A stretch of 64,000 bases of DNA. Source: Prevotella sp. Its GTDB lineage: Bacteria; Bacteroidota; Bacteroidia; Bacteroidales; Bacteroidaceae. The notes under the pieces were generated by a model that was given only the letters and a program-made list of their open reading frames with translations, was not told the origin of the DNA and made no database searches. This document shows positions 24,631 through 62,234 of this stretch, piece after piece (position 1 is the first letter of the stretch; every line of letters begins with the position of its first letter). The DNA is taken from NCBI GenBank assembly GCA_017524385.1, contig JAFWSS010000259.1, positions 1-64,000 on the forward strand, read 5' to 3'. The position numbers and the translations under genes were made by a program.

Positions 24631-24633
24631 AAA

Positions 24634-29972: not shown

Positions 29973-30020
29973 TTCATTTATATGTTATTGATAGGTTTCC
30001 TTCCTGCTTATCCTGCCATG

Positions 30021-31550: not shown

Positions 31551-31645
31551 AAACGAGAAGACGTTTATTTGCAAGTGCTTTTTACGGTTTCGTCACAATC
31601 ATTTCACCCATCAACTGCTTGCCATCATCGCCAACATATTACTCA

Positions 31646-34541: not shown

Positions 34542-34559
34542 AATGATTAAGGTTAGACA

Positions 34560-35270: not shown

Positions 35271-35313
35271 ATGTTTTTTTAAATATTTTTTTTTTCAGTC
35301 ATTTTGTATCACA

Positions 35314-44263: not shown

Positions 44264-45493
44264 TTAGATGATGGGGCCCAACCACACTTTACTGTCTTTG
44301 ACAAGAGTGACCTTGAAAGTGTTCACCTTGCTAGTCCTTCCTCCCATACAGGCCATCAATTTGACAGTGAAGTATTTAGGAGGTTCCTCCGACTTGTCGT
44401 TTCTGAATCCGCTTTCAAGTATGACGGTTGGCCCCTTCTTCGAGTTGGCGTCGGGATCTGTCCCGTCCAAGGTGTAATAAACAACGGCTTCCCTTGCAAT
44501 GTTGACGATGGGGATTTTGACTTTTGGTTGTCGGATTTTCTTCATCAAGTCGTTTTCACTGATGGCAGGAGCTTCCAGCTCGGTCACAGGTTCCTTCCTC
44601 TCCTTTCTTTCCGTCCCCTTCAGCTTGTCCATCTTCAAGCAGATGTCTTGAATGATGTCCAAGCCCATTTTGATGTCTTGATATGCATTCTTGTAGTTGT
44701 ATGGTGCCATTGCAAATTCATCGAACAAGTCGGCATCTTCCAAGTCAAGGCTGTCATCCAACGCACAGGCACAAGTGAAGGTGCCCACACATTGCTGCAC
44801 CTTTGAGAGCAGAGCCATTGGCGTCATCGTGTCACATTCCTTGTCTGCAGCAATGGCCAGTTGTCTTACCACAGGCCAGAAGGCCGTCACGACCGTCCTG
44901 CCTTTCGCTTTCCTACATTTGCCATCCAGTTCACGGAGTATGCGAACAAGTCGCTGCAGTTGTTCCAGGAACCAGACATGCGATTTGACAAAGAGGCATG
45001 GCGGCACGAACAGTTCCTCGTCCATTTTCCATCCATCGTCATAGACGAGCCTAGCGATGGGAACCGCCCTTTCCGGCACGGGCGTGTCGGTTCTTATGAT
45101 GATGAACGAATAGCATGGTGTCTCGTATCCGTCGTTGGTTTCTCGCCAAGGCTCGTCGGTAGCCTCTATGGCAAGCAACATCACATCGGCATTCCTTCTT
45201 TCCGGCATCCTCACACGGGTGTCGTAGGCGTTGGTGTATGTCGTGTCGAAACGTGCGTCAATCAATTCCCCACTTTTTGTAAGGGCGAGGCAAGAGAGCG
45301 TTGTCACTTCCACGAATCCGTCGGCGATGTGCAAAGTCAGTTGGAATGGCTCAGTCGAGGGCAAAAGTCCGAAACGGCCAACGGCTGCCATGGCGTATGC
45401 ATGCCTTACCCATGCCATCGTGCATGCATCTGCATCCCTGAACAGTTCGTCGGTAAGTATCATGCCCTTTTTCCAGTTGATTCTCTTATGCAT
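44264..45493 (-). CDS. tssK: TssK-like baseplate protein
   Basis: The ATG at 45493 gives MHKRINWKKGMILTDELFRD, which mirrors the TssK opening VxWxxGMxLxPxHF; a TTG at 45511 overlaps the previous stop and is less likely. A beta-sandwich (FQLTLHIADGFVEVTTLSCL, LLAIEATDEPWRETNDG) is followed by a helical middle and a C-terminal beta domain (YYTLDGTDPDANSKKGPTVI). TssK trimers dock the baseplate to the membrane complex. The C-terminal YTLDGTDP also looks like a chitobiase/CHU-like fold, so the assignment rests on the N-terminus and the neighbours. Confidence 0.6.
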   Translation of the reverse strand: MHKRINWKKGMILTDELFRDADACTMAWVRHAYAMAAVGRFGLLPSTEPFQLTLHIADGFVEVTTLSCLALTKSGELIDARFDTTYTNAYDTRVRMPERRNADVMLLAIEATDEPWRETNDGYETPCYSFIIIRTDTPVPERAVPIARLVYDDGWKMDEELFVPPCLFVKSHVWFLEQLQRLVRILRELDGKCRKAKGRTVVTAFWPVVRQLAIAADKECDTMTPMALLSKVQQCVGTFTCACALDDSLDLEDADLFDEFAMAPYNYKNAYQDIKMGLDIIQDICLKMDKLKGTERKERKEPVTELEAPAISENDLMKKIRQPKVKIPIVNIAREAVVYYTLDGTDPDANSKKGPTVILESGFRNDKSEEPPKYFTVKLMACMGGRTSKVNTFKVTLVKDSKVWLGPII

Positions 45494-45507
45494 GGTCTTT
45501 TTGAGTG

Positions 45508-46392
45508 TCAAAGGTTGGTGTTATAGCTAAGATAATTGTAAACGATATCGTCGGAGAGCTTTGGTGGAGGCGCATCCTTGACAATGTTGAAAGACAGGAG
45601 GTCCCCTACGGCGAGGAAGTAGTCCTCCACGAAAGTGCAGAATTGTCGCACTTGTTCCAAGAAGTTCGGGAAATCCTTGTCACACCTTTCGTCCGACCAG
45701 AAATGGATGACAAAAGCATGTGTGTTTTCCTCAAAGACGTTTCCTGCAAAGCATTCTCCCAAAGTGCTCCCCACAGTGAAGTCGTAATGCGTGGGTTCCG
45801 TGTCTTCAAACGTGACAGGCCGTCGGGACTCCTCCATGTTCAATCCTTCCTCCAAGAATATCTTTCTCATCATCAACGTCAAGAGCATGTGATTTCCCCT
45901 GATGTCCCTGCATTTGGGAAGGAAGGCGACGGCACTTTTAATGAGTGGGTTTTCCTTCTGCTCTTCGGTGAGTCTGTCGGCAAGGATGTCGATGAGCACC
46001 TTGTTGGAGTCGGTCCACTCCCTCATCTTCCGCCGCACCTTCATCCTCATCTGCAGAAGCATGAGATCGACAGGCTCGAAAAACTTCCTTGCATTTTCCC
46101 TCTCCTTCTCCTGTTTCTCCAACTCTTCCTTGAACCTCTCCTTCTCCTCCAGTTTGGGTAGGTTGTCGAAGCGGTCGATACGATGGAAGAGGTATTCCGG
46201 GAGATAGTGATAGATGCTGTTTCTCGCGAGGCTCAACTGCATCCTACCCTCGGGCGAAACATCCATGTCGACGATGTCGCCAAAGGCGTTTCTTGCATGG
46301 AGCCCCTTGAACATGACGCTGCACGTCTTCTCTGGCAGGAAGTCGAGCAGTTCCTCCACATCGAGGTCTCCGGGAATGAATTGCAAGGTCAT
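45508..46392 (-). CDS. TssG-like baseplate candidate, 294 residues
   Basis: The ATG at 46392 lies 4 bases after the E1 stop, and MTLQFIPGDLDVEELLDFLP looks like a true start; longer starts overlap the E1 gene. The protein has NSIYHYLPEYLFHRIDRFDN, a long coiled-coil (LEEKERFKEELEKQEKEREN) and a C-terminal RxxFCTFVEDYFLAVGDLLS. Order and size suit TssG, which pairs with TssF in the wedge, but the sequence has no firm TssG signature. It may be another T6SS iii-specific baseplate part. Confidence 0.5.
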   Translation of the reverse strand: MTLQFIPGDLDVEELLDFLPEKTCSVMFKGLHARNAFGDIVDMDVSPEGRMQLSLARNSIYHYLPEYLFHRIDRFDNLPKLEEKERFKEELEKQEKERENARKFFEPVDLMLLQMRMKVRRKMREWTDSNKVLIDILADRLTEEQKENPLIKSAVAFLPKCRDIRGNHMLLTLMMRKIFLEEGLNMEESRRPVTFEDTEPTHYDFTVGSTLGECFAGNVFEENTHAFVIHFWSDERCDKDFPNFLEQVRQFCTFVEDYFLAVGDLLSFNIVKDAPPPKLSDDIVYNYLSYNTNL

Positions 46393-46396
46393 GGGT

Positions 46397-47599
46397 TTAG
46401 AGGTAGAGGCTGGCATCGCCGGTGAGTTCGATGTGGAATTGTCCCTTCTCCGTTGCGACTTGGATGACATCGAATGGCGGTATGCCCACTTGCTGCAATG
46501 AGAGATTTTTGTAGGGGAATTCGTCGTCGATATCCTCGTAGAACGACTTGTGGAAGAGCGTGTGGTAACGCATCTGCTTCAATTCGGGATCGGTCTTGAT
46601 ATGATCCTCCAATTTCGAGTCGGGCATCATGACCTGGAACTCCTTGTTGTTTTTGTCGGCGACGATGACATCTACGAACTTGTTGTTGAGCATGTTGATT
46701 TCCACGCTGTCCACCTCCAGCATCTTCTTGAGTGCATCGAGTGTTTCCTCCACGGTCATGTTGGCCGACAACCCCTCTCCCTTCATCACATCCTGCCAGA
46801 TGTCGTGTGCGTTGCAGTTTTTCTTCCAAGAGGCAAAATTATAGATGCGTGTCATATTGGTCATTCCCTCATACCTGAACATCTTGCCGTGCAGCGTCTT
46901 GAAAGGTGATGGCTCGCCAGGCTCGTCATGTATGATTTTCATAGCCTCCTGCACCTGCATGGCCCCTATGATAGAAGCGCTGATGGGGGTGGTTGCCACC
47001 CTTCCCGCTTTCTCCGATACTCTGACGACATCGGCGCACCCTGTACGCAGCATGATGTGGTTGAACTGGTCCCTGGAGAGTCCGCATTCATAACAATTGA
47101 TACCAGGTGCGAAGACACGGAGCATGCCGGTGAGGTTTTCTATGCTGCCATCCACCCAAGCCTTTCCCGCTCTCATACAGAGGCGGTTGAGCAGATAACG
47201 TGCGATGTAGCTGTCAAGACATCCCACCACCACGTCGCACGAACGGTAAAGCCCCAGCCCTACTTCAGAAAAAAGGTTTCCTATGATAGGCATCACCTTG
47301 ATTTGAGGGTTGATTTCCATAGCCCTTTGCGCCACGACTTCCGCCTTCCATTTGTGCTTGAAGGCGTCGTCCTCGCGGAAGAGGATGGAGCGGGTGAGGT
47401 TTGACACCTCAATACGGTCGAAATCCACCACATAGATGTTTCCCACACCGAAGAGCGCCATATCCTTCACCACCTCGTTGCCCAATGCTCCGGCTCCCGC
47501 TACGAGCACACGGGCGTTCTTCACCTTCTCTTTCTTGAACCAGGAGAGCAGGTTGAATACACCCTCCCCCCATTCATATCTTTCTTTCCTTACTGGCAT
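46397..47599 (-). CDS. E1-like ubiquitin-activating enzyme (ThiF/MoeB fold)
   Basis: 400 residues. The ATP site is VLVAGAGALGNEVV (GxGxxG, 34-40) and VVDFDRIEVSNLTR (58-70), the D-x-D-x-x-E-x-S-N-L-x-R signature that binds ATP and Mg; DVVVGCLDS (122-130) is the D-x-x-D-Asp/Ser loop. A CYEC pair (169/172) is half of a zinc site; the normal second pair is missing. Cys188 (RTGCADVV) sits where ThiF has its thioester Cys, before PISASIIGAMQVQEAMKII. The last about 130 residues could be a UFD-like E2-docking domain (LSLQQVGIPPFDVIQVAT). It should adenylate and transfer a ubiquitin-like C-terminus to the E2. It directly abuts the TssG-like gene. Confidence 0.88.
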   Translation of the reverse strand: MPVRKERYEWGEGVFNLLSWFKKEKVKNARVLVAGAGALGNEVVKDMALFGVGNIYVVDFDRIEVSNLTRSILFREDDAFKHKWKAEVVAQRAMEINPQIKVMPIIGNLFSEVGLGLYRSCDVVVGCLDSYIARYLLNRLCMRAGKAWVDGSIENLTGMLRVFAPGINCYECGLSRDQFNHIMLRTGCADVVRVSEKAGRVATTPISASIIGAMQVQEAMKIIHDEPGEPSPFKTLHGKMFRYEGMTNMTRIYNFASWKKNCNAHDIWQDVMKGEGLSANMTVEETLDALKKMLEVDSVEINMLNNKFVDVIVADKNNKEFQVMMPDSKLEDHIKTDPELKQMRYHTLFHKSFYEDIDDEFPYKNLSLQQVGIPPFDVIQVATEKGQFHIELTGDASLYL

Positions 47600-47670
47600 G
47601 GATTGAAAATGAAAAATTAAAAATGAAAAATTAAAAATGTCCCTACAAACGTAACAACATCATGGACATT

Positions 47671-48465
47671 TCAGAACACGAAGCCGACATTTCCACCTAC
47701 GAAGAAGTGTCCGATGCGATCGGCGAAGATGTCGCCGCCCTCGGTGGAGAAGTTGATATCATACTGCCCGAAGAGGCCCACCCGCACAAGCTGCTTGCCT
47801 GCCGGTATGTATCCGCCAAAATCCAAACGTGGAGCCACGAAGAGGCCGGAACGGCTCTCGTCGGTGTAAGTCACCTTCTTGTTCTCGTCCTCCACCTCCT
47901 TGCCTTTTGCACCGGAATAAAAAGTGGGGACTATTCCCACACCGAAATAGAGGGCAGCCTTCTTACGGTCGAGCCGTGTCCATTCCACAGAGACAGGCAC
48001 GCCCACCTCGAAGATGCTTTCGTTGTAGGTGGCATCTTCCTCCCATCCGGGCTTGTTCTTCCATGGGGCCACATACTTACCGGTGGAAAGCGCTAGTGAA
48101 AGTCCGATGTTGAGCCAAGTGGTCTCGCCAATGGCTTTCTTCCATGCCCCATCCACACCAAAGACGTTGGAGGTGCCATTGGCCACGAATCTCGGCATGG
48201 AGAACGAGGCATTGAGCATCCAGGCGGTTTTCAGCGGCTCCGTCTCTTCCTTCCATTTGACCACCGTGTCTTTCTTGATTTTGAAATCATCATAAAGGAT
48301 TTCCAAAATCTCCTCACGACTGATGTCCTTCCTCGGTTGGAAGTTGTATTCCGTCTCGTCAATGAATCTCACATCATAAGGACCGACTTTGAATTCTTTC
48401 ACTTCTTGTGCCATTCCATCCAAAGCGACGGTCAACAAGAGCAGCATAGATAAGATTTTTTTCAT
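47671..48465 (-). CDS. Outer-membrane beta-barrel protein, 264 residues
   Basis: Signal peptide MKKILSMLLLLTVALDGMAQ, an N-terminal soluble part (YDVRFIDETEYNFQPRKDIS), then alternating barrel strands (TAWMLNASFSMPRFVANG; GIVPTFYSGAKG; FVAPRLDFGGYIPA; VRVGLFGQYDINF) and a terminal Phe (VGGNVGFVF), the usual end of an outer-membrane strand. It sits between the RING protein and the E1 in the same operon. It could be the outer-membrane exit or anchor of the apparatus; that is inferred. Confidence 0.75.
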   Translation of the reverse strand: MKKILSMLLLLTVALDGMAQEVKEFKVGPYDVRFIDETEYNFQPRKDISREEILEILYDDFKIKKDTVVKWKEETEPLKTAWMLNASFSMPRFVANGTSNVFGVDGAWKKAIGETTWLNIGLSLALSTGKYVAPWKNKPGWEEDATYNESIFEVGVPVSVEWTRLDRKKAALYFGVGIVPTFYSGAKGKEVEDENKKVTYTDESRSGLFVAPRLDFGGYIPAGKQLVRVGLFGQYDINFSTEGGDIFADRIGHFFVGGNVGFVF

Positions 48466-48494
48466 GTTTTAATTTTTTAAGGTTGATTGGATAG

Positions 48495-50987
48495 TTACTC
48501 GTTCTCTACATATTGGAAGGTGGTGTCGCCGATGCGGAAGGTGTCGCCATTGGACAGCACCTGTTCCTTGTTGGTGGCAAGTTCCGCCCTCATGTTATAG
48601 TTGATACCAGCGGCCATGGGTTTCAGCACGGGAAGGAAGCGTTCCGGGTCGATGAAGAGCAGCGCGTGCTCCTTGGCCACCTTGTTGCTCTTCTCCCAGT
48701 TCATTTGTATCTCGCAGTCGCCAGCCATTCCGATGCTCACCCTGTTGCCCACTTGCATCCATTTGTGGATGGGGATTTTCAGACCTTCACGCACACCATT
48801 CAATACGACAAGGAAGTATTTCTCCGCCAACATCCTGACGGTGACGAGCGATGCTCCCAGTCCTCCACCATAGATGATGAAGTTGAGCAGCATGGGCATC
48901 CAGCCTGTTTTGGTGAATTTGGAAAAATATAGTACGAAGAAGCCTATGACGGCGGAACAAAGACCTCCTATGAGCGCGTTTTTCAGCGGTATGGATGACT
49001 TGATGGCGAGACTTGCCGTCATACAAATGGAGAAAAGTATGTATGCCGGCAGCGAGAAATACCATGGTATGCTTGTCGCCCCAGTGGCTGACACAAGAAG
49101 GCATAGGATGAGTCCTCCGATGGCGAAAGCCGCCATACCGATGAGTGCGGAAAGCAATGATAGCCCTATTATGCGCAACATCACCTTCCAGTCCTTCTCC
49201 CTATACTCGTCATTGTATCTGAATACAAAGGAGAGGAAGAATCCCAACAGCAATCCAATGGCCAGGAAAGCTGCAACCTTGCCAACACAATTAGTGAAAA
49301 TCCCTATAGGTTCACCATTTGGCTGCATCCACTGCTCTCCCCTTAACACGATGTTGGCTATTCCTTTTGCCAATCCTTTGAAAGGCGCGTCACATTTTGT
49401 CAGGACGAAAATCAAGTCGTACAACACCCATCCCACGAGTCCCGCTCCGATGCCGGAGAGGGTCTGGAAGCAGTCCTTGAACGATGTCTTGGTAAACAAG
49501 TGATTCATATCAACGTGTTCCTGTATGCCACTGACACAATTTTGTCCATACTCACCGCAGTGGTATCCACCTTGTTTCCAGCAGCCCACGTGCATGATGT
49601 GCTTGCACTTGGTCACCACCATCTGTCCGGGTTTGATTTCACCCCTACATCCCGAGCAGATGCGCCTTTTGACATTGGGCTCCTGGACGTAGGGTTTGTA
49701 ATACTTCACCTCGAACCTCTTTGACTTGATGTAGGGGATAAGCACCTTTACAATCAAGAAAAAAACGACAAAGGCGAGGGCGGCCAACAGCAATGCCCAA
49801 AGGTATTTACTCAGTTGTTCGCCCAAGGTTACCTCTTTTTGGGGCCAAGGGAGTTCCTCCGACCCAATGGCAAAGTCTGCCTTGCCGGCGGAAGAGTCTT
49901 GCCAGAAAGCCTCAAAACTGGTGTTTCCACTATAGGATTCATCTTCAGAAACCTTGTAAACCAAGGCGTAGTCGTACATCCAGTCTTCCATAAGTTTGTT
50001 CAACTCATCAAACATCTTGTCGATCTGGCCTACTGGCATGTATTTGCCCTGACGGTCTACGATGAGAGCGCCTACCTCTTCTCCCGGTTTTAGAGAAGCG
50101 CGAGGTTGGCAAATGGCCTTGAGCGTCTCAGCCACATCACTATCATCCTCCATTTTCACCCCTCCAGGCAAATGATAAAAGGCATATACTTTCGGGACGA
50201 AATGGGTAGTATCATTTTGAAAATTGTAAAAATCTAAGTAATTCAAACCTCCACTTTCGTAGTCCGCATCCTTAGCCCCATCAATGAAGAGCAGCAGTAT
50301 GTTCTTATCCTTGTTCTTGTTTGCCCTGTACGCAATGGCCTCGTTCATCACATATCCCTCTTGTTTCCTGACTTTATCCTTCAACGATGCATAGTCAGGA
50401 CAGAATTCCGCCAATTTTGCATATACTGCGCTGTAGAAGCATTTGTCAGAACTTGTCGCATCAAACTCCCCCTTGAATTCTCCGATGTTATTTTTGCTAA
50501 TGAGTTGGGATGATGTGACTTCATTGCCAAAGAAAGATAGATAGACGCAACTGTCTGGGGCGTTCATCACTAATTTTTCCATTGCCTCATAGACCATGTT
50601 CTTTCCCTCCGGAGACAGTCCCCTGTCCACCACGATGGAGAATGTGAAGCCTTGAGGCACGCGTTGTTCACCCAACTTCAAGGGCATCACTTTCATATCG
50701 GCGGCCCGCACTTTCTTTCCATTCGCCTCGATGTAGAATTTTTTCTCCAACTCCGCATCTTTGATGTCCTTGACATGCTTGTTGTCTTTGTCGAGGAAGT
50801 TGAAGTATAGTGTCACACTGTCTTTTCCCAGTCCATATTCGTAATTGTAATCACAAAACTGCACTTTCACATCCTGCGCTTGCAATGTAAGCGTAGCCAG
50901 CGTGGCAGAAATTGCCAACACCATCTTGTGCAATGCCGGGAAGCTTAGCCTCCTTGTACGCCAACTCATCTTTTTCTTCTTGTCCAT
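48495..50987 (-). CDS. Multi-pass membrane vWA-RING-FHA protein (candidate E3)
   Basis: Residues 1-38 hold a signal/anchor; about 112-350 is a von Willebrand A-like domain (FTFSIVVDRGLSPEGKNMVY; ILLLFIDGAKD) outside; a span at 396-420 leads to a cytoplasmic RING-like domain at 444-484: Cys444, Cys447, Cys461, His463, His466, Cys469, Cys477, Cys484. This is C-x2-C-x13-C-x-H-x2-H-x2-C-x7-C-x6-C, the C2-C-H-H-C-C-C order of RING-H2 with a long last spacing. About five further spans fill 505-735. Residues 745-828 look like an FHA domain (NRVSIGMAGDCEIQM; GDTFRIGDTTF), which binds phosphothreonine. It starts 22 bases inside the JAMM gene. It would be the ligase of this pathway, with kinase input through FHA; both roles are inferred. 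Confidence 0.8.
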   Translation of the reverse strand: MDKKKKMSWRTRRLSFPALHKMVLAISATLATLTLQAQDVKVQFCDYNYEYGLGKDSVTLYFNFLDKDNKHVKDIKDAELEKKFYIEANGKKVRAADMKVMPLKLGEQRVPQGFTFSIVVDRGLSPEGKNMVYEAMEKLVMNAPDSCVYLSFFGNEVTSSQLISKNNIGEFKGEFDATSSDKCFYSAVYAKLAEFCPDYASLKDKVRKQEGYVMNEAIAYRANKNKDKNILLLFIDGAKDADYESGGLNYLDFYNFQNDTTHFVPKVYAFYHLPGGVKMEDDSDVAETLKAICQPRASLKPGEEVGALIVDRQGKYMPVGQIDKMFDELNKLMEDWMYDYALVYKVSEDESYSGNTSFEAFWQDSSAGKADFAIGSEELPWPQKEVTLGEQLSKYLWALLLAALAFVVFFLIVKVLIPYIKSKRFEVKYYKPYVQEPNVKRRICSGCRGEIKPGQMVVTKCKHIMHVGCWKQGGYHCGEYGQNCVSGIQEHVDMNHLFTKTSFKDCFQTLSGIGAGLVGWVLYDLIFVLTKCDAPFKGLAKGIANIVLRGEQWMQPNGEPIGIFTNCVGKVAAFLAIGLLLGFFLSFVFRYNDEYREKDWKVMLRIIGLSLLSALIGMAAFAIGGLILCLLVSATGATSIPWYFSLPAYILFSICMTASLAIKSSIPLKNALIGGLCSAVIGFFVLYFSKFTKTGWMPMLLNFIIYGGGLGASLVTVRMLAEKYFLVVLNGVREGLKIPIHKWMQVGNRVSIGMAGDCEIQMNWEKSNKVAKEHALLFIDPERFLPVLKPMAAGINYNMRAELATNKEQVLSNGDTFRIGDTTFQYVENE

Positions 50988-53179
50988 ATTTTCAAATCTT
51001 GTAGTTGTTGTTGTCCATGATAATTTTCATCCATGCAGGGTCTGCCTTGCTCGACGGGGAGGACTGTAACCTTGTCGTTGTCGGTGTTGAGCACCATCAA
51101 GTAGTGCAAGCCAGACAAATCTTCGCCCATCATCTTTTCCACCTTCTGGATGTCGGAGGTGACGATGAACGCGCCGTCGGGCTTATGTCCCACAAGTTCC
51201 TCCTTTTTCTTCACTTCATTGGCCACATATCGAGTCTTGCCTTGCAACTTTGTGGCGAATCCTTGCACGAAAGCCACCAACTCGCCCGTCCCTTCCGTCG
51301 CCAATGCCGCCATATCGATGATGGCTCCGTTGGAGAGGTGCAAGCCGAGGCAGTCGTCGTGGTGTGCCTTGGCATTATCGAGAATATCGAAATGGTCTTC
51401 CGGTTTGAAAGCCCATCTGTCACATCCTACCGCCCATTGGTACCATTCCTCCAGCGAATAGGTTTTCTTGAGGTCGCTTTTGGAGATGATGCTTCCGTCG
51501 CGCTTGAAGGTGAAGATACCCAATTCCTGCTCAGGTGTGAGGATGTCTATGACCAGTGCTGTTAGGAACCTGGGATGGTCGTGGCGTTTGAGGCTCAGAT
51601 GCACATTGTTGTCATCGTTGCTGAAAAACACGCCGAGTCCGGGATGTGAATGCACCCAACAAGTGTTGTCATATTGCAGTTTCGTCTCGATTCTCAATCG
51701 TTTCAAGCGCTCCCTCAACTTGATTTTGATTTTTGCCCCGAAATTGAAGTCGTACTCTCCAAAGACCGCATCGTCGCCGGGAAACACCACCTGTTCATAG
51801 GTGACATCATAAACTTTGTCACTCTCGTCATACACCCACCTGCCAAGCACCAAGCAGCCATCCTCCTTGGGATTTTCGGGGTTGCGCAGATCCTCGGCAT
51901 ACATGTTGTAGATGTCCTTCACGACGGTGTTTTTCACATAGATGAACCTGACGGCAGAGTCATCGCAGAATTCCGACGTGTCAATCCTCATATATTGTTC
52001 ATCATCCCTTACGTCGTCAATGTTCTGCAGTCTGAGGATGATTTGCGTGGTGTTTACCCTGCTAATGCCGGAATCAGAGCCTCGATTAGGCTCGCGGGTG
52101 GGTCTCAACCTTGTATTATTGGTAGGCCTATTGGGTACCGGTGCTGGCTTTTTCGGTCTTCTCATATTTTTTGTTCCCCACTTCCACCATGCAAAGGCAC
52201 AAAGAGCAACCAAAGCAAGTGGTATCAACCACCACCACTTGTTGGAAGCCTTGTCGCCATGGTCCAGATGTATGGTTTCCTCGCCCAACTCTTTCGCCAA
52301 CATATTGAGGTTTTCCTCACGCGACTTGAGTTTTTGCGCCAAAATGTTCGACATTTCCTCCATACACTCCTCCTTGTTTTCCACCTTCATGCCACCATAG
52401 TAGTCCTCTATGAAACTTTCTAACATGGCATCTGTATGGTCATTGTAATAAAAGAGTGAATCCTGCTGTTTTTTCAGCAAGGAGCGGAGGTTGTTTTCCT
52501 CTGCATATAGTTCCTTGTCCTTCCATTGTTGCAAATTCTTGACATAATCGGAAATCTCAACTTCTTCAGAGGCGATTTCATCAGAAGAGAAATAGCTGAT
52601 GTTCTCGATGTAAAGTTTGAACTGTTCCAACACATCGTCCTTGCTGACAGTGGGAACGGAAACGTCCCCCTTGTAAGGTTTTGAGTCAGGGTCTATAACG
52701 ACCTTTTTACCCGGCTCATCACCCTTGTGGTTATCCACTATATCCTTTTTGGGGGAAGGCGAATCATTTCCCGGGTCAGAAGGAGTGGGAGAAGGAGTGG
52801 GACCTTCTTTTATTTCAGGCTTTGGCTCGGGCTTTGGCTTTACAACAACCTCTTTAAGTTTTGTAAAAGTACCACCACTCCCATTGCTGTAAATCGAGAC
52901 TTTGGTACAGACTACATCTAATGGCAGACTTTCTTTATGAGCTTTAACACTTATTTCTGGAATATCCCCATTTTTGAACTTGACGTCAATATCATAGTCA
53001 GAATTATTTTTCACACCAGTCACATGATAACTGCCATCATCAGTTTTGACATGAATGACCTCTACATTAGTCACGTCAGGTTTGACTTTGTGGTTTTGTT
53101 GTGCAAAAGCATGATGTCCAAGCAAAAACGCTCCCAAAAGCAGGGTTAACTTTAGCATGGTTATAGACTTATTTCTCAT
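50966..53179 (-). CDS. Membrane-anchored JAMM/MPN protease (deubiquitinase-like)
   Basis: A signal segment (LTLLLGAFLLGHHAFAQ), a beta-rich outer domain (about 30-110), a Pro-rich linker (KPKPEPKPEIKEGPTPSPTP), a helical outer domain, one span at 315-333, and a cytoplasmic JAMM domain. The zinc set is complete: Glu439 (KEDGCLVLG), then HSHPGLGVFFSNDD with His510, His512, Ser520 and Asp523 (H-x-H-x7-S-x2-D). JAMM proteases cut isopeptide bonds or trim ubiquitin-like precursors. Its start overlaps the coiled-coil gene by ATGA and its end overlaps the RING gene by 22 bases, so all three are co-translated. The C-terminal about 150 residues after the JAMM are also soluble. Confidence 0.88.
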   Translation of the reverse strand: MRNKSITMLKLTLLLGAFLLGHHAFAQQNHKVKPDVTNVEVIHVKTDDGSYHVTGVKNNSDYDIDVKFKNGDIPEISVKAHKESLPLDVVCTKVSIYSNGSGGTFTKLKEVVVKPKPEPKPEIKEGPTPSPTPSDPGNDSPSPKKDIVDNHKGDEPGKKVVIDPDSKPYKGDVSVPTVSKDDVLEQFKLYIENISYFSSDEIASEEVEISDYVKNLQQWKDKELYAEENNLRSLLKKQQDSLFYYNDHTDAMLESFIEDYYGGMKVENKEECMEEMSNILAQKLKSREENLNMLAKELGEETIHLDHGDKASNKWWWLIPLALVALCAFAWWKWGTKNMRRPKKPAPVPNRPTNNTRLRPTREPNRGSDSGISRVNTTQIILRLQNIDDVRDDEQYMRIDTSEFCDDSAVRFIYVKNTVVKDIYNMYAEDLRNPENPKEDGCLVLGRWVYDESDKVYDVTYEQVVFPGDDAVFGEYDFNFGAKIKIKLRERLKRLRIETKLQYDNTCWVHSHPGLGVFFSNDDNNVHLSLKRHDHPRFLTALVIDILTPEQELGIFTFKRDGSIISKSDLKKTYSLEEWYQWAVGCDRWAFKPEDHFDILDNAKAHHDDCLGLHLSNGAIIDMAALATEGTGELVAFVQGFATKLQGKTRYVANEVKKKEELVGHKPDGAFIVTSDIQKVEKMMGEDLSGLHYLMVLNTDNDKVTVLPVEQGRPCMDENYHGQQQLQDLKIWTRRKR

Positions 53180-54969
53180 ATTGAAACGTTGTTTTTTCCG
53201 TTATTGTTTTTGTTTCTTTTCCAAAATTCCCAAAACCTTTTGGGCTTGGTGGCAGTGGCAGCTCCTCCGGCGTGCTTTGGATTTCGAGAAGAGATTGGTG
53301 TTTTGGTAGTATTTGACGCCCTACGTGATTGTGATGATTGTGAAGTTTGTGAAGTTTTTGGATTTTTGTGAGACATAGGCGGCGGAGCATTGTTGGTTCT
53401 TGCCTTTTTAGCGGTCGTCCTTCCTGCCGCGACATTTCCCGTTGATCCTGAGTCCTTGTCGTTGTTGTTGGGAGAATCCGTGGGAGTGTTTGCCCTTGAC
53501 CTGTTAGTGCTTCCAGCGGTCTTTTTCTGTTTCGCCGGTTCTTCAGAAGCAGGAGTTTCCGGTTCTGTGTTGTCCTGCCGGGAGGTTCCTTGCTGGGCCA
53601 TGGTTTCCGCCTTGCGTCGCAAGGAATACTCCGCATTGCTCTTATATCGTCCGAAAATCCTGCCAAAGAACCCTCCGGCTTGTTGGGAAGGACCTGTTGA
53701 CATGGCTTCTCCCGTGGCCAAGCCACGCGCCTCTCGCTCGGCTTCATTCATAAGTTCTCTATTAAACTTACTTCCCCACTTTTTATTCAGATAAGAGAAC
53801 AAGAACATCAGAATGATAGCCAATAAACCGAGGAGTCCACGTAAGATCCATTTTATAACGTTCTCCTTTTTCAAAGCTGCTTCTTTTTCCTCTGAGATGC
53901 TTTCAAGTTCATTGTACACCGCATTCAACCCTGTGTCATCTTTATAACTCACACTGACTATGGGTGCCAAATCAAACATCTCTTGTTTATACCCTTCCAA
54001 TTCCTCAGTGGATTTCGCATTACGCATTTTTAAACGGAGAGATTCGATTTTGATGTACAACTCTTGCTTTTTCTCGTCTTTTTCCTTGGCAATCAAATCT
54101 TGTTTCTTGTCATCATAAGCCTTTTCCAATTTATTGTAGTCATCTTTAAGACTCGCATCATTTTCCGCCCAAACTCCTAATTCTGTAATTTGATTTTTTA
54201 AACCAACCAACTTCTCTTGTGAATCAGCGTCATCGATTTGTCTTTTTAACGCTTCTATCCTATATCTTAATCCTTCTGTCGAAGAAGGAGGATATGGGAT
54301 TTCAGGACCAATAATAGGTTCCTCATGTGGTATGGTTTCATTCACGACATCTTTTTTTTGAATGACCTCATAACCTAGTTCATTGAGTTTCTGTGATTTC
54401 TGCGGCTTGGAAATATCTGTCTTAGGTTGATTAATTGCGACCTGTTGTTTTTGCAAATGTAGGCGGAGGTCATCCTGAGTATGAGCGAAGAGTTTGTATT
54501 CTGTTTTTTTACCTTTTGACGGTATCTTAAATATCGGTTTTTTATAAAGAGCCAGAAAAATAGGTATTTCAATGTCTGCAGCATCTGAGTTCAATTGGAA
54601 TTTGAGTTTTAAATTCCCGTCATCTCTGAGATTGTAAAAGTCATTAGATTGTTTGAAATCATACGCCACAGATGATGGAATTCTCATTGCATTTGGCTTT
54701 AGCCCTTTTTTATCTAGGACGATGGTTTTAAATTGGGTTTTATCGAAAAACATCACTTTGACGTCGTTGGTAGGATGACCTCTGTAATAATTTTCGCCAC
54801 TGAATTCTGCTTTGGAAAATATCACAGTGACGACATCACCCTCCACCGACATTTCGTAATTGATGATTACCTTGTTGGAATCATCCAATTTCAACGTGTC
54901 ACGAACCACCTCGGCATGAAGCGATAAACACAGCAGTTCTATGGTTAACAAAAAAAGAAGTTTCTTCAT
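53176..54969 (-). CDS. Coiled-coil single-pass membrane protein, 597 residues
   Basis: Signal peptide MKKLLFLLTIELLCLSLHAE. Residues 25-160 are a beta-rich outer domain; 230-370 is a coiled coil (STEGLRYRIEALKRQIDDAD; KKQELYIKIESLRLKMRNAK); the membrane span is 372-394 (VIKWILRGLLGLLAIILMFL). The cytoplasmic tail (400-597) is a basic, Thr/Asn/Gln/Ser-rich, low-complexity stretch (SGSTGNVAAGRTTAKKARTN), possibly a scaffold or substrate. It overlaps both neighbours by ATGA. No family recognised; in a T6SS lacking TssJLM it could serve as a membrane-complex part. Confidence 0.68.
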   Translation of the reverse strand: MKKLLFLLTIELLCLSLHAEVVRDTLKLDDSNKVIINYEMSVEGDVVTVIFSKAEFSGENYYRGHPTNDVKVMFFDKTQFKTIVLDKKGLKPNAMRIPSSVAYDFKQSNDFYNLRDDGNLKLKFQLNSDAADIEIPIFLALYKKPIFKIPSKGKKTEYKLFAHTQDDLRLHLQKQQVAINQPKTDISKPQKSQKLNELGYEVIQKKDVVNETIPHEEPIIGPEIPYPPSSTEGLRYRIEALKRQIDDADSQEKLVGLKNQITELGVWAENDASLKDDYNKLEKAYDDKKQDLIAKEKDEKKQELYIKIESLRLKMRNAKSTEELEGYKQEMFDLAPIVSVSYKDDTGLNAVYNELESISEEKEAALKKENVIKWILRGLLGLLAIILMFLFSYLNKKWGSKFNRELMNEAEREARGLATGEAMSTGPSQQAGGFFGRIFGRYKSNAEYSLRRKAETMAQQGTSRQDNTEPETPASEEPAKQKKTAGSTNRSRANTPTDSPNNNDKDSGSTGNVAAGRTTAKKARTNNAPPPMSHKNPKTSQTSQSSQSRRASNTTKTPISSRNPKHAGGAATATKPKRFWEFWKRNKNNNGKNNVSI

Positions 54970-56378
54970 TTAGTCTCCGAAATGATTGTATCGTAAAATC
55001 TCTTTATATCATTTTGTTCGCTTTTTGTAATATTTCCTTTATGCTTCGGACAATTAAGTATATTATTCATCTCGGTAAGATACGTATTTGCGTCATTTCT
55101 CGCTTTTGTTTTTGAAATACTACCATTGCGAAGTTTTATAAGCACTTTGTTTTGTATATCTTTACAAATTTCCGACCCTTTTCTATGTGTACAACCTATA
55201 CATCTAGGTTCAAATTTAGTACATTTAGGGCATATATTTCCTTTTCCATGGAAATTTATCCCACATTTACTACATGTTTTACCTGGACAATCACCATGGT
55301 TATTTGTTCCACATCGATTACAGTATTTTACTTTAGGGCAATTATTCCTTCCTGGATAAGATTTATTACATATTTTGCAATAATATTCTGGTGGATTAAC
55401 AGGACATTTTGGACATTTATTTCCATGGTATGGTCCATGTTCTTTACATTTTTTTTCTTTGGGGCATTTGCCATTGATTAATTTTTCCCCACATCCAGGA
55501 ACCGGGCATCTTTTTTCACATTTTCCGCAATCCCCTATATGCTGATTAAAGTCAATATTATTAAGAGACTCTTGTAGTTTTTGAAATTTTTCGGCTATGC
55601 CAAAACCACTTTTTCCCCATCCTTTATTTTCAAATAAATCCTCAATCAGCTTTACGAGTGTATCTCTTTTATGGATTAGTTCTTGGCGAGCGGTTTCCGG
55701 TTTCCAGATTTTTTCATCTATTTTGATATCTTCTTTGTGTGAAGGATTGTTGCAGAATGAATACTCTGAGATTTGGTTTTTGATGTTATCATATTCGTTT
55801 TTCCACTGGTTGTATAGCTCATTAAGTTTGGTATTCACCTCCATCGTGATGTTGAGGGGAACAACGCGCTTTTCAATTATAGAGAATTTCTTGTTTTTTT
55901 TATTCTCAGCTATATAGATTGGTATTTTTTTTCTTGTCGTTGTATTATTATCCATATTAAAAGAGACAAGGGGTCTGAAACCATCCGTGGGGCCGATAAT
56001 CTTTTCACTTTCCATCTCAGGAAAACCCTCAATGTTTTTATCCCCATAATAGTTATTATCAAAAAGTAATCTCCACCAGAGGCCAAAAGCTTCGACCTTT
56101 TTGTTCTTCAGCTCTTTTTCCGATAATTGCTTAAGGAAAACAATCAAATATTGTGTACCATTATCATATACTTTCTTTAATTCAATGGTCACTTTAGCCT
56201 CTTTTTGGTCCTCATCGAACTGATCTTTGTCATACTTCACCTTGATGTGAAACCCACCTAAATTCAATAGAGTATCAGTGTTCGTTTCATTAAGTTTCAC
56301 ATCAAAATCCTCACTTTGCGCCGAGGAAAGCATGGCCACCATCAGTAGCGTGACCATGAAAAACAATCGTTTTTTCAT
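54966..56378 (-). CDS. Secreted protein with a tandem zinc-finger-like Cys cluster, 470 residues
   Basis: Signal peptide MKKRLFFMVTLLMVAMLSSA, a beta/helical part to about 275, then a strip of 21 Cys at 284-405 in CxxC pairs (CGKCEKRCPVPGCGEK; CKICNKSYPGRNNC; CNRCGTNNHGDCPGKTCSKC; CPKCTKFEPRCIGC), probably four to five zinc ribbons or treble clefs. If the signal peptide works, the cluster is outside the cytoplasm, which is unusual for zinc ribbons. The last 65 residues are a basic helix. Coupled by ATGA to E2 and to the coiled-coil gene. It could be a docking protein of the pathway; no function is known. Confidence 0.72.
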   Translation of the reverse strand: MKKRLFFMVTLLMVAMLSSAQSEDFDVKLNETNTDTLLNLGGFHIKVKYDKDQFDEDQKEAKVTIELKKVYDNGTQYLIVFLKQLSEKELKNKKVEAFGLWWRLLFDNNYYGDKNIEGFPEMESEKIIGPTDGFRPLVSFNMDNNTTTRKKIPIYIAENKKNKKFSIIEKRVVPLNITMEVNTKLNELYNQWKNEYDNIKNQISEYSFCNNPSHKEDIKIDEKIWKPETARQELIHKRDTLVKLIEDLFENKGWGKSGFGIAEKFQKLQESLNNIDFNQHIGDCGKCEKRCPVPGCGEKLINGKCPKEKKCKEHGPYHGNKCPKCPVNPPEYYCKICNKSYPGRNNCPKVKYCNRCGTNNHGDCPGKTCSKCGINFHGKGNICPKCTKFEPRCIGCTHRKGSEICKDIQNKVLIKLRNGSISKTKARNDANTYLTEMNNILNCPKHKGNITKSEQNDIKRFYDTIISETK

Positions 56379-57067
56379 ATTTTCATTCTTGTTTTTGATT
56401 TTGTTTTTACAGATGCCTCACTATCGCTATCGTCTGCATCTTCCTTTTTTCCTGCCTCCTTTTTTGAAGAAACCGGTGGCGTGTCGCCGGGGGTGTTTTG
56501 GGGGAACTTGGTCCACCCATTGGGTTCGGCTTCCTCTCGCACCCACTCGGCCACTTCGAGATCCTCCGGGTAAGGATAGATGTTCTTGGCATGGTAGGAC
56601 TCATATTTGAGGTATTTTTCCACTCTCAGGACAAGGTCGCGTAGCGATGCCATTACTCCGAGGTCCTTGATGGTAAGACATACATGGCCTTTGAAACTAC
56701 CCGAATGGCGTATGTTGGGATGCCAGATGTCCGTACGGAAAGTGAAAATGGGGTTTCCGTCTGCAGCGGGGTAGTTGTTGGGCAACTTGATGAGCATCTT
56801 GTGCAAATTGCCGAAAACGGGTTTTCTTGGAGGTTCGGTTTCCTCCACTCCAACGATGGACCTGACGCGATACCATATCTCGTAAACCACGGGCAGTCCG
56901 ATGATGTTTTTCTTCTTGATGGTGTAAGCGATGGTTGCTGCCAGGGGATTGGAACTCTCCGCCCTCCGCTTGGAGCATAGGGCGTCGAGTTTTTCCCATT
57001 CCTTCAGCAATGCCGAGTCTCGTGGTCCCAGTTCCTTCTGGTTGAACTTCTTGATCAGGTTGTTCAT
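56375..57067 (-). CDS. E2-like ubiquitin-conjugating enzyme
   Basis: 230 residues with the UBC fold. The active-site line is DIWHPNIRHSGSFKGHVCLT: the HPN is residues 116-118 and the catalytic Cys is 130, with four more residues in the loop than in typical eukaryotic E2 (HPN...G-x-x-CL). MLIKLPNNYPAADGNPIFTF is the strand before it (PxxYPxxxPxxxF). The following helix LRDLVLRVEKYLKYESYHAK matches the later E2 helices. An N-terminal 40 residues and a C-terminal basic tail (TPPVSSKKEAGKKEDADDSD) are extra. It overlaps the Cys-rich gene by ATGA. It should accept the ubiquitin-like protein from the E1. Confidence 0.9.
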   Translation of the reverse strand: MNNLIKKFNQKELGPRDSALLKEWEKLDALCSKRRAESSNPLAATIAYTIKKKNIIGLPVVYEIWYRVRSIVGVEETEPPRKPVFGNLHKMLIKLPNNYPAADGNPIFTFRTDIWHPNIRHSGSFKGHVCLTIKDLGVMASLRDLVLRVEKYLKYESYHAKNIYPYPEDLEVAEWVREEAEPNGWTKFPQNTPGDTPPVSSKKEAGKKEDADDSDSEASVKTKSKTRMKI

Positions 57068-57104
57068 ATTGTTTTTTTTATAAATCGAAAATAGTCATAC
57101 ATGC

Positions 57105-57428
57105 TCAACCGGCAATGATATTGCGCACGAGTGACAGGTGGTCACCAGGCTTCACATCATAGTCAAGCAGGCAGAGTTCGTAACCATCCTCATCCTCAAA
57201 ATGGAAGATTTTTGGTTCTTCCTCGTCAGGCAGCACTTGTCCAAGCATATATTCAATGGGAGCGCCGCCATTGTCCATCTTTGGCAGTTCAAACTCACGA
57301 ACGATATTGTTGATCAAATCGCGAATGTTGCGGTTGGGGTCTTCCACCTTCACTTCCACTTCCTCGAACGAGGAACCTTCAATCGACAAATTGATGATGA
57401 AATCATCTTCGTAATCATTGTTTTCCAT
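57105..57428 (-). CDS. Free ubiquitin-like protein, 107 residues
   Basis: A beta-grasp protein: DDFIINLSIEGSSFEEVEVK is the beta1-beta2 hairpin, NIRDLINNIVREFELP the helix, IEYMLGQ the third strand, and LLDYDVKPGDHLSLVR mirrors ubiquitin's LSDYNIQKESTLHLVLR. It ends IIAG, one Gly instead of Gly-Gly and no extra tail, so it needs no trimming to expose a C-terminal Gly. It lies 37 bases before the E2, and a paralogous domain sits in the protein upstream. It would be the modifier conjugated by this pathway. Confidence 0.85.
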   Translation of the reverse strand: MENNDYEDDFIINLSIEGSSFEEVEVKVEDPNRNIRDLINNIVREFELPKMDNGGAPIEYMLGQVLPDEEEPKIFHFEDEDGYELCLLDYDVKPGDHLSLVRNIIAG

Positions 57429-57584
57429 AATTTCAAGTTTTTAGTTAGTATTTATTGTTATTATTGTTTGGAGTTAAGAGGAGTTAAAGGGACGTATGTC
57501 CAAATATTAATCACCTACTTATGATAATTATACGGAAATAATATGTTTAACAAAACCAAGAGTCAAATGCAACTGTTTCTATTG

Positions 57585-58400
57585 CTAACTAACAGGTTTG
57601 CGAACAAGTAACAGATGTATTCCTGGTTTCACATCGTAGTCGAGAAGGCAGAACTTATGATCATTCTCATCCTTCGCCTCAAGAATCCCTGGCTCACCCT
57701 CTATGAAAAGACAATACTCTATTGGCGCACCTGCTTCATTCATCCTTGGTAGTGAAAACTCTCGAATGATATTGTTGATCAAGTCGTGGATGGGAAGTCC
57801 TGGGTCAGTCACTTGCACTTCCACGTTTTCATAATTGGTTCCTTCAATCGACAATTTGACGATGAAATCATCATCCTTGCTCTGGCCTAATAATGTTTCC
57901 AACTGAAACAAGCGGTCATTGAAAGCATTGATTTTAGACCTTATGGATTTGATTTTGTATCCAAGAATCCCATCCTGTCCTTTCAAGGAACTGATTTTCG
58001 CATCCAATTCATTGATTCTATTTGCATTTTCTTGTTCCAATTTATTGTTAGCCCAACTGTGCCAATCGTTTTTCATCAATATGATGATTGTCATGGCCAC
58101 GATGCACAAGACATAGAAAACATAATGAGCAGTTGAAAGTGGTATGATATGCGTGAAGAATGGGTTTACTAAAAAAGGCATGGATATTATCATTATGGCT
58201 ATAAGATAACCCCAAAAGTTTTTTTTGCCTACATAACCAATGGTTGAAATAAGAATGCAACAAAACAATGGAATAACCATAAAAACATCATTGAATTTCC
58301 AAAACTTAGCCACCAATGTACATGCAATAGGAATCAAAGCAGTGGCAAGCCACCCTATCATCCTTGTCAAATCTTGTCTTTTCTGCATGGTCGTTATCAT
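57585..58400 (-). CDS. Membrane-anchored ubiquitin-like protein with four spans
   Basis: Residues about 14-110 are four transmembrane segments (IGWLATALIPIACTLVAKFW; FMVIPLFCCILISTIGYVG; YLIAIMIISMPFLVN; YVFYVLCIVAMTIIILM), then a coiled coil (NRINELDAKISSLKGQ; IRSKINAFNDRLFQLETLLG) and a ubiquitin-like domain (175-271) about 60% alike to the free one (DDDFIVKLSIEGTNYENVEV; LLDYDVKPGIHLLLVRKPVS). It ends in PVS with no Gly, so it is unlikely to be conjugated. It may be a membrane receptor or decoy for the E1/E2/JAMM enzymes. The two ubiquitin-like genes share clear DNA similarity and come from a duplication. Confidence 0.82.
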   Translation of the reverse strand: MITTMQKRQDLTRMIGWLATALIPIACTLVAKFWKFNDVFMVIPLFCCILISTIGYVGKKNFWGYLIAIMIISMPFLVNPFFTHIIPLSTAHYVFYVLCIVAMTIIILMKNDWHSWANNKLEQENANRINELDAKISSLKGQDGILGYKIKSIRSKINAFNDRLFQLETLLGQSKDDDFIVKLSIEGTNYENVEVQVTDPGLPIHDLINNIIREFSLPRMNEAGAPIEYCLFIEGEPGILEAKDENDHKFCLLDYDVKPGIHLLLVRKPVS

Positions 58401-59374: not shown

Positions 59375-59422
59375 ATTGATCGTGCTTAAATATTTATCAA
59401 ATCATTTATAATCCATCATCTA

Positions 59423-61120: not shown

Positions 61121-61148
61121 ATAGTAAAATTTCAAAGATAATTCGTTT

Positions 61149-62192: not shown

Positions 62193-62234
62193 ATACAAAG
62201 TATCATGTTATGAGTAGCTATTGATGCTCATAAC

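What the first reader, a model, noticed from the sequence alone, without database searches (positions are those of the whole stretch)
46397..58400. A full ubiquitin-type pathway (E1, E2, RING, JAMM, two ubiquitin-like proteins) in one bacterial operon
Each class has its own signature: E1 with GxGxxG, D-x-D-x-x-E-x-S-N-L and Cys188; E2 with HPN and Cys130; RING with eight Cys/His ligands; JAMM with Glu439/His510/His512/Ser520/Asp523; two ubiquitin-like domains, one ending in Gly. Bacterial E1/E2/JAMM sets are known (Cap2/Cap3 in CBASS, Bil operons, and sets described by Burroughs, Iyer and Aravind), but RING plus JAMM plus E2 plus two Ubl and several membrane parts in a single T6SS-like operon is uncommon as far as I know.
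Basis: partly seen in the sequence, partly recalled or inferred. Interest (0 to 1): 0.95.

Follow-up and report, generated by a model that had tools for sequence, protein, structure and literature searches.

The report
Secretion machine with built-in ubiquitin-like tagging
In Prevotella-related bacteria, the gene cluster for a toxin-injecting nanomachine (a type VI secretion system) contains the genes of a ubiquitin-like tagging pathway, which is predicted to attach a small protein tag to parts of the machine and so likely controls how it is anchored or fired.

Summary
At 46397-57428 (- strand) one gene run encodes an E1, an E2, a ubiquitin-fold protein ending in Gly (UblA), a membrane JAMM protease and a membrane VWA-RING-FHA protein, inside a type VI secretion (T6SS) cluster: ClpV-like, sheath, Hcp, VgrG upstream; TssG-K-E-F downstream. 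This is not local chance: E1 lies next to tssG in 20 of 21 readable T6SS-type loci, in two gene-block orders; all 9 E2-positive genomes of 251 in the family have the T6SS sheath gene, which 22 have; three further families show the E2 in T6SS loci. In the window genome I found neither TssN nor TssR, parts of the known Bacteroidota T6SS membrane complex; TssN's cytoplasmic domain is itself ubiquitin-like and docks the baseplate. Best explanation: a membrane-bound E3 puts UblA on a T6SS part (likely baseplate or membrane protein), JAMM removes it, controlling docking or reuse. Conjugation and target are untested. Another T6SS group has neither TssN nor the cassette, and one cassette group lacks JAMM, so simple TssN replacement is unproven. 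My searches listed no paper joining such a pathway to a T6SS, but the key 2011 paper was not readable.

The parts
57105..57428 (-). UblA, single ubiquitin-fold protein (107 aa) ending ...IIAG; the predicted tag
   Evidence: AlphaFold2 pLDDT 83.7; fold matches to USP15 UBL, ubiquitin variants, NEDD8, archaeal Ub, EccD; terminal Gly in 23 of 23 T6SS-type UblA read
56375..57067 (-). E2 (UBC-like), HPN116-118, Cys130
   Evidence: PF00179 over cut-off; solved E2s at 3.3e-9; motif 16/16
54966..56378 (-). exported protein with signal peptide (by sequence reading); window copy has an extra Cys-rich C-terminal part
   Evidence: relatives in the same slot
53176..54969 (-). signal peptide, periplasmic part, one TM helix, cytoplasmic tail (predicted)
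   Evidence: hydropathy; same slot in relatives
50966..53179 (-). membrane-anchored JAMM protease, predicted cytoplasmic JAMM domain; TM helix near residue 320 by sequence reading
   Evidence: alignment A4; solved Rpn11/CSN5 at 1.7e-5 to 0.0066; clade III relative passes PF01398. My hydropathy cut-off did not flag the Trp-rich TM of the window copy.
48495..50987 (-). predicted E3: VWA - TM - RING (C444,C447,C461,H463,H466,C469,C477,C484) - about 6 TM - FHA
   Evidence: alignment A5; model; FHA and VWA folds by Foldseek; hydropathy
47671..48465 (-). probable outer-membrane beta-barrel-like protein (inferred), optional
   Evidence: matched in some relatives only: L007, L012, L045; assignment by sequence reading, no family hit
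46397..47599 (-). E1 (ThiF fold), Cys188, putative Zn ligands C169/C172/C262/H265; overlaps the tssG frame
   Evidence: PF00899 5.4e-49; UBA7, UBA6, UBA3 in solved structures, 7.6e-23 and weaker; residues 11/11
45508..46470 (-). TssG (baseplate)
   Evidence: profile matches the gene in the tssG position of a TssN/TssR-bearing T6SS at 9.2e-10; no Pfam or NCBIfam hit
44264..45511 (-). TssK (baseplate)
   Evidence: TIGR03353 6e-7 (below its cut-off); T6SS_VasE 0.019
43735..44256 (-). TssE (baseplate, gp25-like)
   Evidence: PF04965 0.0047, below cut-off; profile 2.6e-5 to the tssE of a canonical locus
41941..43722 (-). TssF (baseplate)
   Evidence: sequence match to the gene beside tssE of a canonical locus, 2.8e-8; position
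57585..58400 (-). UblB: 4 TM helices, coiled coil, Ubl domain without terminal Gly; accessory paralogue
   Evidence: alignment A2; hydropathy
62235..64000 (-). Tle1-like lipase effector (runs to C6:64463)
   Evidence: PF09994 3.8e-15; L005:2235-4463
61149..62198 (-). DUF2931 protein, directly upstream of UblA in 6 of 11 related loci
   Evidence: PF11153 7.2e-14; relatives
36893..38422 (-). Ser/Thr protein kinase; possible source of phospho-sites for the FHA domain (inferred)
   Evidence: PF00069 1.1e-42; a kinase near tssF in 3 of 4 clade I genomes read downstream

Best explanation
This is a ubiquitin-like conjugation cassette encoded inside a T6SS gene cluster, in a genome where TssN and TssR were not found, and its enzymes are predicted to attach UblA to a part of the secretion machine, likely a baseplate or membrane protein, to control docking or reuse. 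Shown at sequence level: E1, E2, a Ubl with terminal Gly, a membrane JAMM and a membrane VWA-RING-FHA protein lie in one gene run with tssG-K-E-F, and this arrangement is conserved. Inferred: E1 activates UblA at Gly107 and passes it from Cys188 to E2 Cys130; the RING protein in the inner membrane recruits the loaded E2 where the baseplate docks; its FHA domain reads phosphorylation by the cluster's kinases; the JAMM protein removes UblA where it is present. Untested: the reaction itself, the target, and the effect on firing.
For: Gene overlaps, taking the longest frames: 4-22 nt from E2 to RING, 74 nt E1/tssG, 4 nt tssG/tssK. E1 is next to tssG in 20 of 21 T6SS-type loci where E1 and its downstream gene could be read; the other (L042) has an open frame of the right size that my profile did not match; no two of the cassette loci compared share over 1 kb at 93% DNA identity, so they are not copies of one another. 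Two block orders keep the link: Ubl-E2-..-RING-E1-TssG-K-E-F (clade I; G683, G812) and E1-TssG-K-E-F-Ubl-E2-..-RING (clade II). 9 of 9 E2-positive genomes among 251 of the family have TssC, which 22 have (Fisher 5e-11, genomes not independent). In the order sample 6 of 393 have the E2: G000, G420, G683, G812, G876 in T6SS loci, G653 not. TssN is not found over the cut-off in 8 of 9 E2-positive family genomes (G633 has one weak match, 24.6 bits against 30.3, in a 698-residue frame); the ninth (G611) has a second TssC, and its TssN and TssR lie on a contig other than the cassette's. Active-site residues and the terminal Gly are conserved. The UblA model resembles ubiquitin and EccD. TssN has an EccD-like Ub-fold domain that docks TssK (PMC10781749, sections read).
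Against: No conjugate or target is shown. A related T6SS group (clade IV: G340, G583, G555 with complete loci, G428 truncated) has neither TssN nor the cassette, so such a T6SS can do without it. Clade II has no JAMM by profile (0 of 4 genomes, three of them 79-88% complete). UblA shows no sequence homology to TssN (hhalign 0.5% at most). RING and JAMM of the window are below Pfam cut-offs. In clade III the same gene set lies outside a T6SS and its RING region has lost 5 of 8 ligands. The assembly has 6.56% estimated contamination.
Confidence: 0.5

Rival explanations
1. The cassette is an anti-phage or conflict system (like CBASS Cap2/Cap3, Bil or Bub) that happens to sit in a T6SS cluster; it tags phage or invader proteins.
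For: Known bacterial E1/E2/JAB sets act in defence (recalled; PMC10097602 seen in search listing). The clade III version of G064, outside a T6SS, adjoins an nSTAND NTPase and an ion-channel gene, a conflict-system look.
Against: E1 is wedged against tssG in 20 of 21 T6SS-type loci and in two block orders; PADLOC matches only the generic ThiF part of E1, and nothing for E2, UblA, UblB, RING or JAMM of the window.
Confidence: 0.15
2. UblA is attached to effectors, VgrG or Hcp and marks cargo for loading or export rather than docking the baseplate.
For: UblA lies directly downstream of a DUF2931 gene, often beside a Tle1-like effector, in 6 of 11 related loci, and one to three unassigned genes after VgrG in G683, G812 and G876.
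Against: The genes upstream of UblA vary between loci while the cassette stays with TssG-K-E-F; in clade II UblA follows tssF, not an effector. RING and JAMM are membrane proteins.
Confidence: 0.2
3. UblA works non-covalently, like YukD or EccD in type VII secretion, as a structural part; E1 and E2 homologues serve as scaffolds.
Against: E1 Cys188, E2 HPN and Cys130 and the UblA terminal Gly are invariant in the sets examined; two of three clade III Ubls carry a tail after the Gly, near a JAMM gene, as if processed.
Confidence: 0.12

Closest known systems
Prokaryotic E1/E2/JAB/RING operons with YukD-like Ubls (Burroughs, Iyer and Aravind 2011; recalled, not readable here; cited in PMC7159879 passages)
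   Same: Separate E1, E2, JAB/JAMM, RING and Ubl genes in one operon; RING proteins with TM helices (recalled); RING of L039 matches Prok-RING_1 weakly (1.3e-4, below cut-off)
   Different: Here the set is encoded inside a T6SS with the baseplate genes, and the RING protein also has VWA and FHA domains. Whether the 2011 paper saw this context I could not check.
Canonical Bacteroidota T6SS-iii with TssNQOPR membrane complex (PMC10781749, sections 6, 11 and part 1 of 12 read)
   Same: TssB, C, D, E, F, G, H, I, K homologues in one cluster; a Ub-fold domain at the baseplate-membrane interface (TssN)
   Different: TssN and TssR not found; Ub-like conjugation enzymes and unrelated membrane proteins beside the baseplate genes. 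The paper reports the membrane complex or part of it in all 443 T6SS-iii found in 1253 complete genomes, with TssN and TssP nearly ubiquitous and TssO, Q, R unidentified in 27, 23 and 31%.
CBASS Cap2/Cap3, Bil and Bub conjugation systems
   Same: ThiF-type E1 and JAMM-type protease (recalled); solved BubCD matches E1 at 2.5e-9
   Different: Those are defence operons (recalled), with E1-E2 fusions in many; here E1 and E2 are separate, a RING-type protein is present, and the partner is a T6SS
Type VII secretion YukD/EccD
   Same: Ub-fold part of a secretion machine; EccD domain among the closest folds to UblA
   Different: No E1/E2 there (recalled); YukD reported as not conjugated (PMC1779556, passage)

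Membership tests
Ubiquitin-like conjugation pathway | E1: ThiF adenylation fold with catalytic Cys | tested here: met
   PF00899 5.4e-49; Cys188 11/11; UBA7 7.6e-23. Thioester role of Cys188 is inferred.
Ubiquitin-like conjugation pathway | E2: UBC fold with HPN and Cys | tested here: met
   PF00179 27.9 vs 27 bits; HPN and Cys130 16/16; aligned to the active Cys region of UBE2K
Ubiquitin-like conjugation pathway | Ubl: beta-grasp fold with C-terminal Gly | tested here: met
   Model and fold search; Gly in 23/23
Ubiquitin-like conjugation pathway | RING E3 with eight zinc ligands | tested here: met
   19/19 of clades I and II keep all eight; family hits sub-threshold; the last pair is spaced C-x6-C rather than C-x2-C, so the fold and E3 role are not certain; clade III keeps 3 of 8
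Ubiquitin-like conjugation pathway | JAMM protease residues | tested here: met
   E/H/H/S/D as aligned; solved Rpn11/CSN5 matches; not found in clade II
Ubiquitin-like conjugation pathway | Covalent conjugation to a target | not testable with these tools
   needs biochemistry
T6SS | Sheath, tube, spike, ClpV and baseplate genes | tested here: met
   TssC PF17541 6.2e-81, TssD PF17642 1.8e-33; VgrG TIGR01646 4.5e-33, ClpV-like, TssK sub-threshold; TssF/G/E by profile to a canonical locus
Canonical T6SS-iii (Bacteroidota) | TssN | tested here: not met
   PF17555: 0 in own genome; the same search rings over cut-off in 9 of 251 family genomes and 23 of 392 of the phylum sample
Canonical T6SS-iii (Bacteroidota) | TssR (not strictly defining: unidentified in 31% of published T6SS-iii) | tested here: not met
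   PF17643: 0 in own genome, present in G636, G619, G467 as controls
Canonical T6SS-iii (Bacteroidota) | TssO, TssP, TssQ | tested here: inconclusive
   hhalign of cassette membrane proteins to single TssO/P/Q sequences under 2%; single-sequence profiles match only the canonical loci among the fetched stretches; no genome-wide family search, and TssP is the near-ubiquitous one
CBASS / Bil / Bub defence systems | Defence-type E1-E2/JAB protein models | tested here: not met
   PADLOC: E1 only, ThiF part, at most 54.5 bits; E2, JAMM, RING, UblA, UblB none
CBASS / Bil / Bub defence systems | CD-NTase (CBASS) or tandem-Ubl BilA (recalled) | not tested
   no dedicated search; UblA is a single Ubl domain

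The most novel reading that the evidence does not exclude
A T6SS that is built and unbuilt by ubiquitination: UblA, a free Ub-fold tag, does in trans and covalently what TssN's fixed Ub-fold domain does in the canonical Bacteroidota T6SS, gluing the baseplate to a membrane complex made of the RING, JAMM and coiled-coil membrane proteins, with the E3 and the deubiquitinase built into the membrane anchor.
Probability: 0.25. Interest if true: 0.95.

Novelty: new variant of a known kind. Interest (0 to 1): 0.86.

Why it matters
Known bacterial ubiquitin-like conjugation systems act mostly in defence or sulfur transfer (recalled). A conjugation cascade with E1, E2, RING-type and JAMM proteins encoded within a secretion nanomachine would be a different use of ubiquitin-like tagging in bacteria and a simple system in which to study how RING-type E3s and tagging evolved. 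It also bears on the published view that Bacteroidota T6SSs share one TssN-based membrane complex: two kinds of T6SS here, with and without the cassette, occur in genomes where TssN was not found. The hypothesis is directly testable with about five genes in a laboratory strain.

Tried and rejected
Homology of UblA, UblB, RING, JAMM and the other membrane proteins to TssN/O/P/Q/R: none at sequence level (18 of the 34 hhalign pairs run compare a cassette or clade II protein with a Tss protein beyond the Ubl/UblB pairs; the highest of all Tss pairs is 4.1%, UblB-TssN). UblB has a TssN-like plan (TM helices then a Ub-fold domain) but is not conserved.

Strict rule 'a T6SS has either TssN or the cassette': rejected. 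Of 22 TssC-positive family genomes, 8 have TssN only, 8 the E2 only, 1 both (two TssC loci), 5 neither; of the 5, G340, G583 and G555 have complete T6SS loci with neither, G428 and G485 stop at contig ends. The TssN-E2 exclusion among the 22 gives Fisher P=0.03.

Homology of clade I exported/coiled-coil proteins to the clade II ones (p400, p280): not supported (3.7% and 3.3%). G876 has one protein matching the clade II p400 profile (5e-7) and a neighbour matching the clade I profile (9e-4), so a link is possible but unproven. The two clade I proteins are related to each other (96.3%).

JAMM as an obligatory part: rejected for now, 0 of 4 clade II genomes (three incomplete). Mobile element: no E2 match in 72,556 plasmid or 50,697 phage records. 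No Rfam or tRNA feature in the window.

Trees: TssH, TssC, TssK and TssG all give the unrooted split {I, IV} against {II, canonical} (94/92, 94/92, 82/74, 78/79); the tool flags long branches for three of them, and the TssG tree does not recover clade I as one side of a branch. Canonical rows are few (1 in TssC, 2 in TssH). The root is unknown, so 'ancestral cassette lost in clade IV' against 'two gains' is open.

Clade III as T6SS: rejected; G064 and G158 have no TssC and carry a phage-like/eCIS-type marker (CIS_TMP) on the same contig about 37 and 60 kb away and a TssR-family gene 21 and 26 kb away (further CIS genes scanned in G064 only), proximity only; G653 shows no match to my T6SS profiles on its 43-kb contig (not scanned with Pfam).

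A VIA-align listing cannot exclude other folds for UblA; talin F0, USP UBL, EccD and ubiquitin domains are tied in Z.

Literature: searches for a T6SS- or CIS-linked ubiquitin-like system listed no such paper: 2 of 2 listed; 2 of 2; 20 of 260; 5 of 5; 12 of 48. Most I saw as listings only. Read: PMC10781749 outline, sections 6 and 11, part 1 of section 12, passages; passages of PMC1779556, PMC3482391, PMC7159879 and PMC11354881. Burroughs 2011 is not held.


Full report
WHAT IS THERE. The window is bases 1-64000 of contig C6 (76,158 bp) of a 5.05-Mb assembly (99.9% complete, 6.56% contamination estimate). All genes discussed are on the - strand. Reading with transcription: a ClpV/TssH-like gene, two TssC genes (PF17541: 6.2e-81 for L005:9851-11284; 418 and 273 bits), a TssB-like gene, TssD/Hcp (1.8e-33), VgrG (4.5e-33) (L005 = C6:60001-76158), a Tle1-like lipase, DUF2931, a BatD-like protein, DUF2167, UblB, then UblA, E2, two exported/membrane proteins, JAMM, RING, an OMP-like protein, E1, TssG, TssK, TssE, TssF, then a 282-residue protein, a LysM-glucosaminidase, a serpin and Ser/Thr kinases. 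With the longest frames, overlaps are 4-22 nt from E2 to RING, 74 nt E1/tssG and 4 nt tssG/tssK, which points to one transcription unit.

CONSERVATION AND CONTEXT. One scan of GTDB contigs with the E2 gave 11 loci, titled Prevotella, Prevotellaceae, Bacteroidales, Bacteroidia or Muribaculaceae. In 10 of 11 (L006 ends earlier) the order is Ubl-E2-x-x-JAMM-RING-(OMP)-E1-TssG, followed by TssK in the 9 that reach it. A sample of 393 genomes of the order gave 6 with the E2: the window genome, G420, and G683, G812, G876, each of another family and each in a T6SS locus, plus G653, a clade III type. In all, E1 directly precedes tssG in 20 of 21 T6SS-type loci where both are readable; in L042 (G609) an unmatched open frame of about 270 residues fills the slot. 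No pair of the 23 cassette stretches compared shares more than 1 kb at 93% or more DNA identity.

LINK TO T6SS IN GENOMES. In 251 genomes of the family: E2 in 9, TssC in 22, TssN over cut-off in 9 (5 more below it, one of them in the E2 genome G633). All 9 E2 genomes have TssC (Fisher 5e-11; related genomes, so only indicative). TssC scores fall in bands: 737-759 bits (9 loci, exactly the 9 TssN genomes), 418-441 bits (10 genomes) and 338-347 bits (4 clade II loci); the window's second TssC scores 273. G611 has both kinds, on different contigs. TssR is not found in 8 of the 9 E2 genomes of the family and is found in G611, in three canonical controls, and in both clade III genomes tested. In the phylum sample of 392, E2 rings in 3 and TssN over cut-off in 23, with no overlap. 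Five TssC genomes of the family have neither TssN nor E2; three of them (clade IV) have complete T6SS loci rich in kinase and FHA genes, two stop at contig ends (G428 of clade IV type, G485 of clade I type by TssC). Four trees agree on the unrooted split {I, IV} against {II, canonical}, with modest support (94/92 for TssH and TssC, 82/74 TssK, 78/79 TssG). Without a root I cannot tell an ancestral cassette lost in clade IV (and, depending on the root, in canonical systems) from two gains.

CLADE III. G064 and G158 carry E1-Ubl-E2-JAMM-RING; in G064 the neighbours are an nSTAND and an ion-channel gene, and G158 has genes of like size there. They have no TssC but a contractile-injection marker (CIS_TMP) about 37 and 60 kb away and a TssR-family gene 21 and 26 kb away on the same contig; in G064 gp25, gp19 and sheath genes were also seen. 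Their RING region keeps only 3 of 8 ligands. Their Ubls end PG and PGGK, and that of G653 ends IAGYLVV, as if some need trimming, a plausible JAMM job (inference).

HOW IT PROBABLY WORKS. In the canonical Bacteroidota T6SS, TssN (5 TM, EccD-like Ub-fold domain) is the only membrane-complex part that reaches the cytoplasm and it recruits TssK (PMC10781749, sections read). In this T6SS, TssN and TssR were not found, while the cassette brings membrane proteins with predicted cytoplasmic RING, FHA and JAMM domains, and a free Ub-fold protein. I therefore propose that the E1 and E2 load UblA, that the RING protein passes it to a T6SS part at the inner membrane, and that this sets docking, firing or reuse of the baseplate; JAMM reverses it where present. 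Steps up to the gene set, residues and context are shown; all chemistry, the target and the outcome are inferred. Against a pure 'TssN replacement' stand clade IV, the lack of JAMM in clade II, and the lack of sequence homology between UblA and TssN. TssO, TssP and TssQ were not searched genome-wide; single-sequence profiles of them match only canonical loci among the fetched stretches.

KNOWN OR NEW. E1/E2/JAB/RING operons in bacteria are known from comparative genomics (Burroughs 2011, recalled; PMC7159879 passages). T6SS is known. Their union is not in the papers that my searches listed (two of these listings were capped), and the 2011 paper, the most likely place, is not held. PMC10781749 has no 'JAB', 'ThiF' or 'RING' as whole words and uses 'ubiquitin' twice, for the fold of EccD and TssN.

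Noticed in passing
L005:9851-11284 (C6:69851-71284): A second TssC with a long branch whose N-terminus resembles the TssB next to it, as if a fused or degenerate sheath duplicate.
   Followed up: partly
L054-L060 (G340, G583, G555, G428): T6SS loci with neither TssN nor the ubiquitin-like cassette; Ser/Thr kinases in three of them, and FHA, WG-repeat, M23 and peptidoglycan-binding proteins where scanned (G583; M23 also G340); their membrane complex is unknown.
   Followed up: partly
L050:472-2994 (G064) and G158:C11:654917-655156: TssR-family gene on the same contig as a CIS_TMP-type contractile system in genomes with no TssC, although PMC10781749 found no membrane-complex homologues outside T6SS loci.
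   Followed up: partly
window 57585-58400: UblB: four TM helices, coiled coil, Ub-fold domain without terminal Gly; plan like TssN (TM bundle plus Ub fold) without detectable homology.
   Followed up: partly
L013:8713-9633: A second Ubl copy continued by about 200 residues of unknown function.
   Followed up: no
L082:9945-10793 (G653): A second JAMM-like gene (8e-25) about 17 kb from the first on the clade III-type contig.
   Followed up: no
window 58457-61210: DUF2167 and BatD-like genes between effector and Ubl genes; phmmer found no copy in the flanks of the 11 related loci.
   Followed up: no
window 38419-39933: Serpin gene in the T6SS cluster; a weaker serpin match also lies upstream of the T6SS in G609.
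   Followed up: no
window 28143-38422: Two Ser/Thr kinases near WG-repeat proteins, a pairing also seen next to a clade IV T6SS.
   Followed up: no
window 54966-56378: Window copy of the exported protein has a C-terminal Cys-rich tail (23 Cys in all) and is longer than its relatives (470 against about 343-380 residues).
   Followed up: no
window 22136-27909: Two BspA-type leucine-rich-repeat proteins (DUF285/LRR_5) downstream of the cluster.
   Followed up: no
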